Shown here one piece after another: positions 31,063 to 36,927 of a stretch of 61,544 bases of DNA (position 1 is its first letter; every line of letters begins with the position of its first letter). The translations under genes were made by a program, and so were the position numbers. The notes beneath the pieces were generated by a model that saw only the letters and a program-made list of their open reading frames with translations, had not been told where the DNA came from and searched no databases. The stretch covers positions 1 to 61,544 of the forward strand of contig JASEFU010000001.1 of NCBI GenBank assembly GCA_030018455.1, in the 5' to 3' direction. This DNA comes from Dehalococcoidia bacterium. GTDB lineage: Bacteria; Chloroflexota; Dehalococcoidia; DSTF01; JALHUB01.

Positions 31063-32170
31063 TCTCGCCTCCTATCTCTTGCAGCGCCGCAATCAGCGCC
31101 TCCGTTTGCTCGGGCAGCCCCACGCTTATGCGCAGGCAGTCGCGCAGGCGCGGCGCTTCGAAGTAGCGCACCATTATCCCGCGCTCGCGCAGCCTTCGCC
31201 ACACGTCCTTCGCGTCCGCTCCGATAACGCGGCAGAGGACGAAGTTCGCCTGCGAGGGCAGCGGCCGCAGGAACGGAACGCCGCTCAGGAGTTCGAACAG
31301 ACGCTCCCTTTCGCCGAGCAGGCGCCGCACTCGCTCCTCGAGCAGCGCCGCGTCCTCCAGCGAGGCGATGAGCGCCGCCTGCGCCGCCGCGTTCAGGTTA
31401 TACGGCTGCTTGATCTTCATCAGCGTCCGCGCTACGGCCGGCGTCATCACACCGTACCCCGCGCGCAGCCCGGCCAGGCCCGCCCACTTGCTGAACGTCC
31501 GCAGCACGATGAGATTGTCGCGCGACGGCACGAGCGAGGCGAAGCTTCCGCCCGAAAACTCGACATACGCCTCATCGACAACGACGATGAGCCCCGTCGC
31601 CAGCAGCGCGTCCAGCTCGTCGCGGCCGGTCACATTCCCCGTCGGGTTGTTCGGCGAGGCGACGAACAGCATTTTCGCGTCGCGGGCGGCCGCGCGCACC
31701 GACGCCACGTCCAGCGAATAGTCGTCGCTGCGCGGCGCCTCGATGACGCGTCCGCCCGCCACACTCGTCAGGAACGAGTACATCCCGAACGTGGGCGGAC
31801 AATCGATGACCGCTTCGCCGGGCGAAAGGAACGCCTTGATCAGCAGCTCGATCAGCTCGTCGCTGCCGCTCCCCGCGACGATGTGCTCCTCGCTCAGCGA
31901 AAGATAAGCGGCAATCGCCCGCCTCGCCTCCCGCTGCACGGGGTCGGGGTAGATGTGGTAACTGGGGTAACTCGCCAGCGCCTCCAGCGCCCGCGGCGAT
32001 GGCCCGTAGGGGTTCTCGTTGCCGTCGAGCTTGACGATCTGCTCCGGTTTCACCCCCAGCCGCTGCGCGAGCTGGTCCACTGGCTCAATGGGCTCGTAGC
32101 CCTCCAGCGCAGAGAGATCAGGCCGCAACAGGCGCTGCACGTCGATATCCAGACTGCTCTTCTCGCTCAT
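31052..32170 (-). CDS. hisC: Histidinol-phosphate aminotransferase
   Basis: A 372-residue class I/II PLP aminotransferase. KLDGNENPYGPSP, ASPNNPTGNVT, VVDEAYVEFSG and the PLP-lysine motif RTFSKWAGLAGLRAGYG are complete. ATG 32170 overlaps the hisD stop as ATGA. Position between hisD and hisB supports the histidine role over related aromatic aminotransferases. Confidence 0.96.
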   Translation of the reverse strand: MSEKSSLDIDVQRLLRPDLSALEGYEPIEPVDQLAQRLGVKPEQIVKLDGNENPYGPSPRALEALASYPSYHIYPDPVQREARRAIAAYLSLSEEHIVAGSGSDELIELLIKAFLSPGEAVIDCPPTFGMYSFLTSVAGGRVIEAPRSDDYSLDVASVRAAARDAKMLFVASPNNPTGNVTGRDELDALLATGLIVVVDEAYVEFSGGSFASLVPSRDNLIVLRTFSKWAGLAGLRAGYGVMTPAVARTLMKIKQPYNLNAAAQAALIASLEDAALLEERVRRLLGERERLFELLSGVPFLRPLPSQANFVLCRVIGADAKDVWRRLRERGIMVRYFEAPRLRDCLRISVGLPEQTEALIAALQEIGGEIGR

Positions 32171-33507
32171 CCGTCAGAGCCCCCGTCGAGGCCGAGCCGC
32201 ATCTCGATGGCGCGGGCGTGCGCCGTCAGTCCCTCCGCGCGCGCTATAGCCGCCGCCGCCGGCCCCCACTCGCGCAGCGACTCCTCGCCGACGCCCACGA
32301 CGTTGGTGATCTTCAGGAAGTCGAGCACGTTCAGCGGCGACGAGAAGCGGGCGCTCCCCGCCGTGGGCATGACGTGGCTGGGGCCGGCCGTGTAGTCGCC
32401 CATCGCCTCGGGCGAAGACTCTCCAATGAAGACGCCGCCCGCGTTGCGCACCCGTCGCGACCACGGACGCGGGTTGCGGACGAGCAGACAGAGGTGCTCC
32501 GGCGCGTACTCGTTGGCGAGGGCGATCGCCTCGTCCAGCGTGCGGACGATGACGGCGCCGCCCCGCGCCTCCATCGACGCCCGCGCGACCCGTTCGCGTT
32601 CGAGGCCGGTAAGCTGCCGTTCCACCTCGCGCTCAACGTCCGCGGCAAACCTGCGGGAGGTCGTGATCAGTAAGGCCGTCGCCAGCTCGTCGTGCTCCGC
32701 CTGCGCCAGGAGATCGGCCGCGCACAGGGCGGGATCGGCGCTGCCGTCAGCGATGATCACGGTCTCCGTCGGCCCGTAAACGGAATCGATCCCGACGACA
32801 CCGTAGAGCTGCTGCTTCGCTAGGGTGACGAAGATGTTCCCGGGACCGCAGATCTTGTCGACGCGCGGCACCGTTTCCGTCCCGAAAGCAAAGGCCGCGA
32901 TGGCCTGCGCGCCGCTGCCGCAGAACACGCTGTCGATGCCGGCGATATCGGCGGCGACAAGCTTCAGCGGGGAGACGCGGCCCGCCCTATCGACCGGCGA
33001 GATCATGAACATCTCTTCGACGCACGCGACCTTGGCCGGCAGCGCGGTCATGAGAACGGAGGAGGGGTAGACGGCGTCGGTGCCCAGCGCGTACACGCCC
33101 ACGCGCTGGAGAGCCCGGACGCGCATCCCCAGGCCGTCCTTCGTGAAGCTGGACATGGTCCGGTCGTACTGCATCTCGTGGAACAGCCGGATACGCTCGG
33201 CGGCGAACCGCAGCGCGGCCGCGATTCTCGGCTCGACCTGCTCGTACGCGGCCTTCACCTCTTCGGGAGAGACGGTCAGGGACGGGTACGGCACGCCGTC
33301 AAACGCTTCGCTGTAGCGCCTGAGGGCGGCGTCGCCCTCGTTTCGCACGTCGCGTATGATGCGCGCCACCGCCTCCGCCGGCGAAAGCTCCCGACCGAAC
33401 ACCGCCCGCGTCCTCTCGTGAATGTGGGGCGGCACGTCCATCTGCGTCAGGGGCCGGCGGCGTAGCAGCGAGCGGCGCGCCTCGTCCGCGCCGAGAACGA
33501 TCCTCAT
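32167..33507 (-). CDS. hisD: Histidinol dehydrogenase
   Basis: A 446-residue zinc enzyme that carries out the last two oxidations of histidine synthesis. KICGPGNIFVTLAKQQLYG, GIDSVYGPTETVIIAD, the zinc-ligand region AQAEHDE, and EYAPEHLCLLV are present. It starts at ATG 33507 overlapping the stop of the phospholipase-like gene (ATGA) and overlaps hisC in the same way. Confidence 0.97.
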   Translation of the reverse strand: MRIVLGADEARRSLLRRRPLTQMDVPPHIHERTRAVFGRELSPAEAVARIIRDVRNEGDAALRRYSEAFDGVPYPSLTVSPEEVKAAYEQVEPRIAAALRFAAERIRLFHEMQYDRTMSSFTKDGLGMRVRALQRVGVYALGTDAVYPSSVLMTALPAKVACVEEMFMISPVDRAGRVSPLKLVAADIAGIDSVFCGSGAQAIAAFAFGTETVPRVDKICGPGNIFVTLAKQQLYGVVGIDSVYGPTETVIIADGSADPALCAADLLAQAEHDELATALLITTSRRFAADVEREVERQLTGLERERVARASMEARGGAVIVRTLDEAIALANEYAPEHLCLLVRNPRPWSRRVRNAGGVFIGESSPEAMGDYTAGPSHVMPTAGSARFSSPLNVLDFLKITNVVGVGEESLREWGPAAAAIARAEGLTAHARAIEMRLGLDGGSDG

Positions 33508-34256
33508 TTCAGGTACCTTCGCAAAGCAGCCAGGGAACCGGTTGTGACAGCATGGAGGAACTCCGTCATGCGGTGCTCCGTTACGTGCTCCTTTGCCTCC
33601 CTGAGCAGGTCGGGGACGGTTGACAGGAACTCGTCGAGCTTCTCTTCGGTATCGATTCCGGCGTTAAGAAGAAAACGTCCCGCCAGATAGCGGAAGCGGT
33701 CCCAGCTCGGCGGGCGTTCGAGCATTTCGACGGCAACGTCCCGCCAGCGCCGCAGCGACGCGCTGTCAACGAAGGCGATGTCAAGGTCCAGGTCGCTCCC
33801 CAGAAGCACGGCTCTGATCTCGCGCGTGATCTCCGCGCGGCGACGGCGCTCCAAGTCCATATCGTACTGCAGCACCCGGTCCATTATGTTGGCGCGGGCG
33901 TCGCCGCCGAGGGGCGAGTCGGGCCCGAAGACAGGACGGTATATCTCGGTTATCCAGAGCTCGTCGATTACCAGGTGTGAGATGTACCCTGCGACAAACG
34001 CCGGCGCGCCGCCTCTAAGCTCGTCGGGGCAACGAAGTTCGGGATGCGCCTCGAAAAACGTCGCCACGCTGTTCTGCTCGTGCAGCTCGTCGAGCTCGAA
34101 GTAGTGAGAAAGGCTCCTCTTCCGCCCGTCAAGGATGTGCATGTCGGGGCCCGTCGAGCCCATATAATAGGCGCCTCGGTAGGCGTCGAGCGTGGGATGT
34201 GAGAGGGTATCGGCCAGCTCTCTCGCGACGGACATGTGAAAGACGAGATGCGGCAT
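33504..34256 (-). CDS. Zinc-dependent phospholipase C-like protein in the his operon
   Basis: A 250-residue protein that starts MPHLVFHMSVARELADTL and has YMGSTGPDMHILDG, LSHYFELDELHEQ and VAGYISHLVIDELW. These His/Asp positions follow the zinc-dependent phospholipase C/S1-P1-like fold (PF00882 type). No signal peptide is visible, unlike secreted phospholipases, so the true substrate is probably intracellular and unknown. ATG 34256 is two bases after hisG; its stop overlaps the hisD ATG (ATGA). The tight coupling to histidine genes is unusual. It could fill in for the missing histidinol-phosphate phosphatase, but this is speculation. Confidence 0.72.
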   Translation of the reverse strand: MPHLVFHMSVARELADTLSHPTLDAYRGAYYMGSTGPDMHILDGRKRSLSHYFELDELHEQNSVATFFEAHPELRCPDELRGGAPAFVAGYISHLVIDELWITEIYRPVFGPDSPLGGDARANIMDRVLQYDMDLERRRRAEITREIRAVLLGSDLDLDIAFVDSASLRRWRDVAVEMLERPPSWDRFRYLAGRFLLNAGIDTEEKLDEFLSTVPDLLREAKEHVTEHRMTEFLHAVTTGSLAALRRYLK

Positions 34257-34258
34257 CG

Positions 34259-35671
34259 CTACCCCTTGAGCGCCACGTTGCTCAGGAACATGCCCGTCAG
34301 CTCCTTGACGAGGCGTTCTCGTTCGCCCGGCGGCTCTTGCGTAGACGCAATCAGGCAGGTGGTCGATTGGAAGAGCCGCTCGATTACCTTCAGACGGTTG
34401 GCGGCGAGCGTAGCGCCGGTCTCCGTCCCTTCGATCAGAAGCTCGGCGTCCTCAGGAACAAACCCTTCCGAGGCGCCACTTATCGGCACCACTTTGTAGC
34501 GGCCCAGGTGACGGCCGCGGGCGAAATGGTCGGCGACGTTTACGTACTCGGAGGCGACCCGAATGAAGGCGCGTCCTTCCGCCCGCCACGCTTTCAACGC
34601 CTCGTCGAGACCCGCCGCCGGCAGCTCCTCGCTCACCACGGCAGCGATGCTGTAGCTCCCGAGATGCAGGTCCGCCGCTTCCCTGACGGGGCTAAGGGGA
34701 AAGCGGTACAGGTGATCGAGCAGCCAGTCGCGGCCGGTGATCGCCAGGTCGAAATTGCCCAGCGCGACCTGCTGCGGCATATCCTGCGGGCGGATCACCT
34801 TCACTTCGACCCCGTCCATACTGCAGCCGGGTCGCCGCGCTGCCGTCTCCTCGTCATAGCCCGACAGCTGGATGCCGGCTTCCCTCAGTGCAGCGACAGC
34901 GTGGCGTTGCTGGTGGCCGTCCGGCAGCGCCAGGCGCACCGCGTTGTCGCGCCGCTTCCACGGGACATCCTGTCTCCTTCCGGGTGCGCGCGCAAGCGGC
35001 GGAGGCGGCGTCAGCGGCGGGCGGCCGTTTGTCACGCCCTTCAGCGATAGCAGGGGCTTAATGAGGCGGCCCAGGTCCTTCGAACGCAGGCTCTGCTCGT
35101 TGGCGACAAGCCACACTGAGCTCTCCAGCAGCCGGTGAACGGGGCGCAAGCCGTTTCTCGAAAGGTCGTCCTCGTCCTTTGTCGCCACGAGCGCCAGCTC
35201 GGCGTCCTCCGGCGGGTACGCCTCGGCGGCGCCCCACACGGGAAATATGCGATACGAAGGCAGCCGGGCGGCGCGCGCGAAGGCCTCCGCTAGGCCGGGG
35301 TACTCGCTTACGAGACGCACGACGGGCGTCTCCCACCAGGGGGCGTTTTCGCCCGACGCAGCGGCCGCGACGTATATCGAGCGCTTCCCGAGCCCAAGGT
35401 CGCACAGGGGGACAATCGCCTCGCTCGAGTAACGGCCGAGCAGCTCTTCGACCCACGCCGCATCGCAGATACCGAGGTCGTAGTTGCCGAGGGCGATCTG
35501 GATCGGTATGTCCCGCTCGCGGAAGACGCGGACCCGAAGGCCGTTCTCCCGCGAGGCGGCGACGTAGGCACGCGAGCCCCGCGCGTACTCCTCGAGCGGC
35601 AGTCCCACCTCCGTGAGCAGCCGTCCGAGGGCCGGTCTGACGTCGCCGGCGGGGAGGGCGAGCCTTATCAT
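34259..35671 (-). CDS. hisG: Tandem HisG-HisG ATP phosphoribosyltransferase
   Basis: A 470-residue chain with two short-form HisG units. Unit 1 (1-212) begins MIRLALPAGDVRPALGRLL and has RERDIPIQIALGNYDLGICD, CDLGLGKRSIYVAA and NGLRPVHRLLESSVWLVAN. A proline-rich linker follows (213-243, with TPPPPLARAP). Unit 2 (244-470) repeats the plan: AVRLALPDGHQQRH, RPQDMPQQVALGNFDLAITG, and IEGTETGATLAANRLKVI. The PRPP-binding TGxTL loop is intact only in unit 2 (418-422); in unit 1 it reads ATKDEDDL. The N-terminal KGRL motif is altered in both. Start ATG 35671 overlaps the hisZ stop (ATGA) and has GGAGGAG upstream. First enzyme of histidine synthesis, expected to work with HisZ. Confidence 0.9.
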   Translation of the reverse strand: MIRLALPAGDVRPALGRLLTEVGLPLEEYARGSRAYVAASRENGLRVRVFRERDIPIQIALGNYDLGICDAAWVEELLGRYSSEAIVPLCDLGLGKRSIYVAAAASGENAPWWETPVVRLVSEYPGLAEAFARAARLPSYRIFPVWGAAEAYPPEDAELALVATKDEDDLSRNGLRPVHRLLESSVWLVANEQSLRSKDLGRLIKPLLSLKGVTNGRPPLTPPPPLARAPGRRQDVPWKRRDNAVRLALPDGHQQRHAVAALREAGIQLSGYDEETAARRPGCSMDGVEVKVIRPQDMPQQVALGNFDLAITGRDWLLDHLYRFPLSPVREAADLHLGSYSIAAVVSEELPAAGLDEALKAWRAEGRAFIRVASEYVNVADHFARGRHLGRYKVVPISGASEGFVPEDAELLIEGTETGATLAANRLKVIERLFQSTTCLIASTQEPPGERERLVKELTGMFLSNVALKG

Positions 35672-36927
35672 CGCCGCTCCTCCTGCCAGCGCAGCGCATC
35701 TTCGAGAGCGCCGTACCGCGCCTCGCTGCCGCTCTTCGTGTCCCGCAGCTCGTAGACGAGAGGCCCGGCCGGCTGCGATATTGCCAGCTCCCAGCGCGCG
35801 GGTTCCTGCTCGCCGGAGGGCGCCCCTACCACCGCCCGGCGCCCCTCCTGCCGCAGCCGCTCGACGGCGGCGAAGACGGCGGCCAGCACCTCCGGGCCAT
35901 CGCTGTCCGCCTTCACGACCCATGCCTCGCTTTGCTCAGTCCTTACGGGCCCATCGATTCTGGCGGCGACTGCGTCGAGGCCGAGGGCGAAGCCGGAGGC
36001 GGGCACCGATCTGCCGCCGACGAGGGCGATGAGATCGTCGTAGCGGCCGCCGCCGCCGATGCGCTTTCCGTCCACCCTGAACTCGAAGACCGGGCCCGTA
36101 TAGTACTCGAAGCTCCGTACAAGCGTCGTCTCGATCTCGTACTCACAGCCGGCGCGCTCCAGCACATCGGTTATCTTCGCCAGGTCATCGAGCGGCCTTT
36201 CGAGGCCAGGCAACGCGGAGAGGAACGCTGCCCGCAGATTGGCGAGGTAGGGGGCCTTGCCGCCCTCCACGTCAAACAGGAGATGCAGGGGCGCCTTCAG
36301 GTCGGGCAGCCTCGCCTCTATCTCTTCCAACACCGTCAAGTCGCCGTCGAGGAGGCGGTCGTAGCAGGCCACCTGCTGTTCCGGTGATAGCGATGCCGCT
36401 GCCAGCACTGTCCTGACGAGACCCGCGTGCGAAAGCCCCACCTGCGCCCGCTTCAGCCCCATTTCGGCGAGCGCGGCCCGTCCGAGAAGCACCAACTCGA
36501 TATCGCCCGCCAGCCCCAGATCGCCGATAAGCTCCACTCCGCACTGCCAGTCCTCGCGGCTCTCGTCCCCTGTGGAGAAGCGGAAGACGCTCTGGCTGTA
36601 GAAGAAGCGGGCAACGTCGCCGGGAGAAAGGTTCTCTACGTAGAGGCGGGCCGCCGGGATCGTCGCGTCCGGCCTGAGGACCACGCGCTCACCGCTCCAG
36701 CCGTCCCAGTCGAGGAACGAGTAGGTGCGTTCGAGCATCTGCGGCGAGAGGGTGCCGGCGGCGGTGAAGAGGTGCAGGAATTCGATGGTAGGGGTCCGTA
36801 TCTCCGAGTAGCCCCACGCCCGGCAGACGCGGCCGAAGGCCTCTTCGGCACGGCGGTAGCGCGCCATCTCATCCGGCAGAAGGTCTCGCATACCCCGGCA
36901 ACGCAATGATTTGTCTCCATCGGACAT
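35668..36927 (-). CDS. hisZ: ATP phosphoribosyltransferase regulatory subunit HisZ
   Basis: A 419-residue relative of the histidyl-tRNA synthetase catalytic core. It shows class II features RGMRDLLPDEMARYRRAEEA, VLRPDATIPAARLY (motif 2), FRFSTGDESREDWQCGVELI, and the histidine-site segments RSFEYYTGPVFEF and IGGGGRYDDL. Its place directly before hisG, overlapping by ATGA, argues for HisZ, the partner needed by short-form HisG for activity and feedback, rather than a tRNA synthetase. The start ATG 36927 is chosen because codons upstream (to 37134) cross the promoter; its SD is weak. Confidence 0.88.
   Translation of the reverse strand: MSDGDKSLRCRGMRDLLPDEMARYRRAEEAFGRVCRAWGYSEIRTPTIEFLHLFTAAGTLSPQMLERTYSFLDWDGWSGERVVLRPDATIPAARLYVENLSPGDVARFFYSQSVFRFSTGDESREDWQCGVELIGDLGLAGDIELVLLGRAALAEMGLKRAQVGLSHAGLVRTVLAAASLSPEQQVACYDRLLDGDLTVLEEIEARLPDLKAPLHLLFDVEGGKAPYLANLRAAFLSALPGLERPLDDLAKITDVLERAGCEYEIETTLVRSFEYYTGPVFEFRVDGKRIGGGGRYDDLIALVGGRSVPASGFALGLDAVAARIDGPVRTEQSEAWVVKADSDGPEVLAAVFAAVERLRQEGRRAVVGAPSGEQEPARWELAISQPAGPLVYELRDTKSGSEARYGALEDALRWQEERR

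What the first reader, a model, noticed from the sequence alone, without database searches (positions are those of the whole stretch)
34259..36927. Two HisG units fused in one chain beside hisZ, with the PRPP loop kept in only one
Seen: a 470-residue frame holds two successive short-form HisG plans (1-212 and 244-470) joined by a proline-rich linker, directly coupled to hisZ. The TGxTL phosphoribosyl-binding loop is intact in unit 2 (418-422) but is ATKDEDDL in unit 1. Unit 1 instead keeps DLGLGK (91-96), which in unit 2 reads DLHLGS. Known: short-form HisG works as HisG4-HisZ4. Inference: one unit may have become a structural or allosteric partner, changing the stoichiometry with HisZ, or the two units share work. 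I know of no described HisG duplication fused in this way.
Basis: partly seen in the sequence, partly recalled or inferred. Interest (0 to 1): 0.78.

Follow-up and report, generated by a model that had tools for sequence, protein, structure and literature searches.

The report
Split-active-site double HisG enzyme
The first enzyme of histidine synthesis in this Chloroflexota bacterium, and in most of its class, is two HisG copies fused head to tail, each of which has lost the half of the active site that the other keeps, so that the pair probably works as one asymmetric unit instead of two identical ones.

Summary
Confirmed. Window 35671..34259 (-) encodes a 470-aa protein with two complete HisG units. 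Both exceed the Pfam cut-off and both fold as HisG (Z about 23). It overlaps hisZ by ATGA and is the genome's only HisG. The fusion is not private. It recurs across class Dehalococcoidia: by my count about 240 of 393 species genomes searched, including closed genomes rich in reductive dehalogenases. It was not found in other Chloroflexota classes sampled. It arose from one duplication, lies beside hisZ, and both units are under strong purifying selection.

In 63 distinct pairs the losses are complementary. Unit 1 lost the PRPP loop (loop Gly in 2/63) but keeps the arginine equivalent to P. arcticus HisG Arg56 (58/63). Unit 2 keeps the loop (63/63) but lost that arginine (1/63). In P. arcticus, Arg56 reaches across the dimer interface into the partner's site. 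What serves the unit-2 site is kept; what serves the unit-1 site is lost. Best reading: an intramolecular pseudo-heterodimer with one composite active site, under HisZ control. No description was found in the literature searched.

The parts
34259..35671 (-). hisG1-hisG2: 470-aa fused double HisG
   Evidence: open frame; two PF01634 matches; AF2 pLDDT 91.7, pTM 0.89
35036..35671 (-). unit 1 (residues 1-212): degenerate HisG; keeps R34 (P. arcticus R56 equivalent), lacks the PRPP loop (residues 165-170 KDEDDL)
   Evidence: PF01634 69.8 bits; HisG fold Z 23.4; residue table
34943..35035 (-). linker, residues 213-243, proline-rich here, variable in relatives
   Evidence: low AF2 confidence in part
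34262..34942 (-). unit 2 (residues 244-470): substrate-binding HisG; T418-L422 loop, E402, R294, invariant H253; A277 where P. arcticus has R56
   Evidence: PF01634 96.5 bits; HisG fold Z 23.5
35668..36927 (-). hisZ, ATP phosphoribosyltransferase regulatory subunit, 419 aa, ATGA overlap with hisG
   Evidence: PF13393 202 bits; TIGR00443 203 bits, below cut-off; separate HisS elsewhere
33504..34256 (-). 250-aa frame, zinc-dependent phospholipase C-like, inside the his operon
   Evidence: PF00882 28.9 bits, just over cut-off 26.8
32167..33507 (-). hisD, histidinol dehydrogenase
   Evidence: PF00815 494.9 bits
31052..32170 (-). class I/II aminotransferase, hisC by context
   Evidence: PF00155 215.6 bits
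30532..30963 (-). hisB (IGPD domain match)
   Evidence: PF00475 198.3 bits

Best explanation
The gene encodes the catalytic subunit of ATP phosphoribosyltransferase as an intramolecular pseudo-heterodimer. Ordinary short-form HisG is a homodimer with two equal active sites, each completed by an arginine (P. arcticus Arg56) reaching over from the partner. Here one HisG was duplicated and fused, and the two halves specialised. Unit 2 binds PRPP and ATP (TGxTL loop T418-L422, E402, R294). Unit 1 has lost its own PRPP site and serves as the partner that supplies the cross-interface arginine (R34) to the unit-2 site. One fused chain then has one working site, and HisZ, translationally coupled upstream, activates it and mediates histidine inhibition as in other short-form enzymes. 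Shown: two HisG folds, class-wide conservation, the complementary residue losses, constant pairing with hisZ, purifying selection on both units, a sole HisG in a genome that has the other his genes sought. Inferred: HisG-dimer-like packing of the units, the trans contact of R34, one site per chain, the HisZ function.
For: 63 distinct pairs: R56 equivalent is R in 58 and K in 4 of unit 1, but R in 1 of 63 unit 2; loop Thr and Gly 63/63 in unit 2, Gly 2/63 in unit 1; R73 equivalent 63/63 in unit 2, 19/63 in unit 1. In 38 single long-form HisGs of the phylum both features stay together (R56 36/38, loop Gly 37/38). Arg56 reaches across the HisG dimer interface to the PRPP pyrophosphate of the other subunit, and R56A costs 42-fold (PMC9734150). 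Gapless alignment to intact 11te puts A277 at its SSRKL arginine, and the unit-1 profile aligns R34 with the SRKL arginine of intact A. baumannii HisG. AF2 of the whole chain: pTM 0.89; each unit HisG fold, Z about 23. One duplication: unit 1 is one side of a branch (SH-aLRT 100), unit 2 likewise (95), both together 99. dN/dS mostly 0.02-0.15 in both units. hisZ directly upstream in every tandem locus with enough DNA. In two genomes the units are separate overlapping genes, both kept. Sole HisG in a genome with HisZ, HisD, HisC-like, HisB, HisI and two HisA/HisF-type genes.
Against: No coordinates of the model were available, so the HisG-dimer-like packing and the R34 contact were not measured. 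The organohalide-respiring genus g26 has Lys in place of Arg56 in unit 1, and R56K was damaging in P. arcticus HisG (PMC9734150). Unit 2 replaces the other pyrophosphate-contacting arginine, R32, by an invariant His (63/63), and unit 1 of the window has Asp there; the passages read do not say in which subunit R32 acts. Unit 2 keeps arginines three positions on (R280, 60/63), which might take over the role of R56 in cis.
Confidence: 0.6

Rival explanations
1. Unit 1 is a structural or allosteric scaffold only: it holds unit 2 and HisZ in place and relays the histidine signal, but gives no residue to the active site.
For: Unit 1 is more diverged than unit 2 (stem 0.9 against 0.35; mean identity 43.8 against 53.0%), and its Arg56 equivalent is Lys or Ser in 5 of 63. 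Always beside hisZ.
Against: R34 is among the few near-invariant unit-1 positions, while the same arginine is lost from unit 2, where it could only serve the dead unit-1 site. A pure scaffold does not predict that asymmetry.
Confidence: 0.2
2. The former substrate pocket of unit 1 has become a sensor site for another ligand (for example AMP, ADP, ppGpp or histidine), so the fusion adds a second layer of control besides HisZ.
For: Unit 1 keeps a HisG cleft fold (Z 23.4), conserves its own set of residues (Y29, E52, D54, Q58, N63, Y64, R136, Y152) and has the E163 equivalent (E150) in 53/63.
Against: No ligand is indicated; conserved residues may equally form the interface with unit 2 or HisZ. 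The unit-1 loop sequence is variable among relatives.
Confidence: 0.1
3. Both units are catalytically active; unit 1 binds PRPP with a different loop.
For: Unit 1 is under strong purifying selection (dN/dS 0.02-0.15 in most near pairs) and keeps E150 in most members.
Against: Loop Thr, Gly and both acidic residues lost in nearly all members and not replaced by a fixed motif; the R73 equivalent kept in only 19/63; the arginine unit 2 would have to lend is missing (1/63).
Confidence: 0.05
4. Artefact of assembly or of a recent accidental tandem duplication.
For: The window comes from a draft genome of 26 contigs.
Against: Same layout in hundreds of species, including closed single-contig genomes; the units diverged before the class radiated and are only 32% identical in the window.
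Confidence: 0.01

Closest known systems
Short-form ATP phosphoribosyltransferase HisGS-HisZ (Psychrobacter arcticus, Acinetobacter baumannii, Lactococcus lactis, Thermotoga maritima)
   Same: HisG core without the C-terminal regulatory domain; HisZ partner (here the gene is directly adjacent); same fold (Z about 23).
   Different: The known enzymes use identical HisG chains with equal active sites; here two unlike HisG units lie in one chain and only one has the PRPP loop.
Long-form HisG (PF01634 + PF08029)
   Same: Same catalytic fold; found instead of the double form in other members of the same class and phylum.
   Different: The double form has no HisG_C domain, and the long-form singles keep both Arg56 and the PRPP loop in one unit.
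Catalytic/degenerate paralogue pairs such as F1-ATPase beta/alpha, serine palmitoyltransferase LCB2/LCB1, trypanosome AdoMetDC/prozyme (from general knowledge, not tested here)
   Same: A degenerate copy without its own working site completes or activates the site of its catalytic sister.
   Different: Not related in sequence; there the two copies are typically separate chains, here they are fused.

Membership tests
HisG fold family (PF01634 / TIGR00070) | profile match over the curated cut-off in each unit | tested here: met
   96.5 and 69.8 bits, cut-off 25.5; TIGR00070 192.9 bits, two stretches
HisG fold family (PF01634 / TIGR00070) | predicted fold of each unit is HisG | tested here: met
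   unit 2 Z 23.5 over 213 residues; unit 1 folded alone Z 23.4 over 201 residues; next non-HisG rows Z about 11
Short-form HisGS-HisZ ATPPRT | no C-terminal HisG_C domain | tested here: met
   PF08029 absent from P0001, present in the single long forms tested
Short-form HisGS-HisZ ATPPRT | HisZ partner gene distinct from HisS | tested here: met
   hisZ overlaps hisG; HisS elsewhere; HisZ scores below the NCBIfam cut-off
Short-form HisGS-HisZ ATPPRT | catalytic subunit is a dimer of identical HisG chains with two equal sites | tested here: not met
   two unlike units in one chain, PRPP loop intact only in unit 2
Short-form HisGS-HisZ ATPPRT | PRPP loop and Arg56 both present in the same unit | tested here: not met
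   unit 1 Arg56 without loop; unit 2 loop without Arg56
Short-form HisGS-HisZ ATPPRT | ATP + PRPP to PRATP activity, HisZ activation, histidine inhibition | not testable with these tools
   needs purified protein
Short-form HisGS-HisZ ATPPRT | hetero-octamer of four HisG and four HisZ | not testable with these tools
   no complex prediction offered
Long-form HisG | HisG_C regulatory domain (PF08029) | tested here: not met
   no PF08029 match in P0001

The most novel reading that the evidence does not exclude
An obligate pseudo-heterodimeric ATP phosphoribosyltransferase, fixed across most of a bacterial class, in which a degenerate HisG supplies the catalytic arginine in trans, an invariant histidine (H253) in the catalytic unit has replaced the usual Arg32, and the emptied unit-1 pocket has become a second allosteric site besides HisZ.
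Probability: 0.12. Interest if true: 0.78.

Novelty: new variant of a known kind. Interest (0 to 1): 0.6.

Why it matters
In ordinary HisG the two sites of the dimer are identical, so one cannot mutate the trans arginine of one site without touching the other. Here the two roles are separated into two halves of one chain. That makes the trans-arginine model of HisG catalysis, and how HisZ activates it, directly testable with single mutations. It also points to an unusual first enzyme of histidine synthesis in organohalide-respiring bacteria and much of Dehalococcoidia, which general family models score simply as HisG, and gives a clear case of how an enzyme dimer becomes a catalytic unit plus a helper.

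Tried and rejected
Artefact or private fusion: rejected by hundreds of relatives and closed genomes. Unit 1 not a HisG fold: rejected by folding it alone. Neighbour is HisS rather than HisZ: rejected, a separate HisS scores 476.6 bits. A second, ordinary HisG elsewhere in the genome: none found. Genomes with only one of the two units: the single-unit cases examined all lie at contig ends. The DLGLGK/DLHLGS contrast as a functional signature: rejected, not conserved. Distribution beyond Chloroflexota: the genome-contig scan returned only Dehalococcoidia/Chloroflexi records, but it uses patterns of the query itself and cannot exclude distant double forms elsewhere; not settled. Two family scans failed on wrong coordinates and were repeated. 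Literature: nine full-text searches found no description; many subscription papers are not covered.

Full report
What is there. The gene at 35671..34259 (-) is an open 470-aa frame. Its ATG overlaps the hisZ stop as ATGA, and it lies second, behind hisZ, in a tight minus-strand cluster: hisZ, hisG, a 250-aa zinc-phospholipase-like frame, hisD, a hisC-like aminotransferase, hisB. Two PF01634 matches cover it, 69.8 bits for unit 1 and 96.5 for unit 2, and no other HisG is in the genome. HisI and two genes of the HisA/HisF family lie elsewhere in the genome. HisH and HisE were not sought. The gene must therefore supply the first step if the pathway runs. The neighbour is HisZ rather than HisS, because a clear HisS lies on another contig.

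Fold. AlphaFold2 on the whole chain with 47 rows gave pLDDT 91.7 and pTM 0.89. Unit 2 matches solved HisG chains with Z up to 23.5 over 213 residues, rmsd 2.2. Unit 1, folded alone with 61 unit-1 sequences (pLDDT 91.7), matches P. arcticus short-form HisG with Z 23.4 over 201 residues, rmsd 2.1. Non-HisG folds stand at about Z 11 in both lists. The high pTM suggests a confident relative placement of the two units, but the coordinates could not be read, so dimer-like packing is an inference.

Distribution. In 60 relatives, genomes with a HisG have either one long-form HisG or the two-unit form. A profile of the double protein run over 400 genomes of the phylum gave full-length matches only in the same class; listed matches in other classes cover the unit-2 part alone. 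Over 393 genomes of the class, 351 have a match; by my own count from that table about 108 are long-form singles and about 240 are of the double type, most of them full length. I looked again at 25 genomes with incomplete, doubled or weak matches. Single-unit cases lie at contig ends. Two genomes, G057 and G450, carry the units as two overlapping genes, and both keep both units.

History. A tree of 29 pairs, 38 singles and three PDB sequences puts unit 1 on one side of a branch (SH-aLRT 100), unit 2 likewise (95), and both together apart from all others (99). The simplest reading is one duplication before the class diversified. The root is not fixed by the method. Unit 1 changed more (stem 0.9 against 0.35), yet both are under strong purifying selection; dN/dS in near pairs is mostly 0.02 to 0.15 in both units.

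Active site. I mapped residues to P. arcticus HisG, whose catalytic residues are reported in PMC9734150. That paper states that Arg56 of one subunit reaches across the dimer interface to the PRPP pyrophosphate in the other subunit, that R32A costs 25-fold and R56A 42-fold, and proposes that either arginine can partly stand in for the other when HisZ is bound. The P. arcticus sequence used came from the alignment to the R56A chain 7z6r, with arginine put back at 56 and its first residue typed as M; the position is confirmed by intact sequences, 11te for unit 2 and A. baumannii 23fh for unit 1. Over 63 distinct pairs, unit 1 has R56 in 58 and K in 4, but the loop Gly in 2; unit 2 has R56 in 1, the loop Thr and Gly in 63, R73 in 63, E163 in 63. 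Single long-form HisGs of the phylum keep both features (R56 36/38, loop Gly 37/38). In the window these are R34 in unit 1; A277, R294, E402 and T418-L422 in unit 2. The unit-1 numbers printed are two too high for the window protein; the values here are corrected by counting in the sequence.

Mechanism. In a HisG dimer the loop of one unit and Arg56 of the other belong to the same site. Unit 1 has lost the loop (its own site) and kept Arg56 (serving the unit-2 site). Unit 2 has kept the loop (its own site) and lost Arg56 (which could serve only the unit-1 site). For these two features, what serves the unit-1 site has decayed and what serves the unit-2 site is kept. A composite single active site predicts this; a pure scaffold does not. 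I put 0.6 on it.

What does not fit smoothly. Genus g26 has Lys instead of Arg56 in unit 1, and R56K was poor in P. arcticus (PMC9734150). Unit 2 has His instead of Arg32 in all 63; Arg32 is not general in Chloroflexota long forms either (3 of 38), so this alone does not argue for loss of function. A tandem-specific arginine at position 59 is kept in unit 2 (60/63) and unit 1 (54/63) and is not explained.

Novelty. Nine full-text searches of an open-access library found no description of a double HisG. The pieces are known (HisG, HisZ, trans arginine), and the arrangement is a new variant of a known enzyme. Whether double forms exist outside Chloroflexota was not settled.

Noticed in passing
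L006, L010, L011, L012, L014, L017-L020, L022, L119, L123 (other Dehalococcoidia and relatives): A single HisG, with the HisG_C regulatory domain where tested (L006), lies directly downstream of a HisZ-like gene (the L010 one scores best with the HisZ model), although HisZ is normally the partner of short-form HisG that lacks that domain.
   Followed up: partly
L076/L145 (G057) and L148 (G450): The two HisG units are separate overlapping genes instead of one fused gene; natural cases for testing whether the fusion itself matters.
   Followed up: partly
window 33504..34256 (-): A zinc-dependent phospholipase C-like frame (PF00882, 28.9 bits) sits inside the his operon between hisG and hisD.
   Followed up: no
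unit 2 residue 253 in the window; all 63 unit-2 sequences: Invariant His where P. arcticus HisG has the catalytic Arg32, in the unit that keeps the PRPP loop.
   Followed up: partly
L146 (G666), between the units: The linker is about 100 residues long and unit 2 has an internal insert with a repeated GNGTI-type stretch, unlike other members.
   Followed up: no
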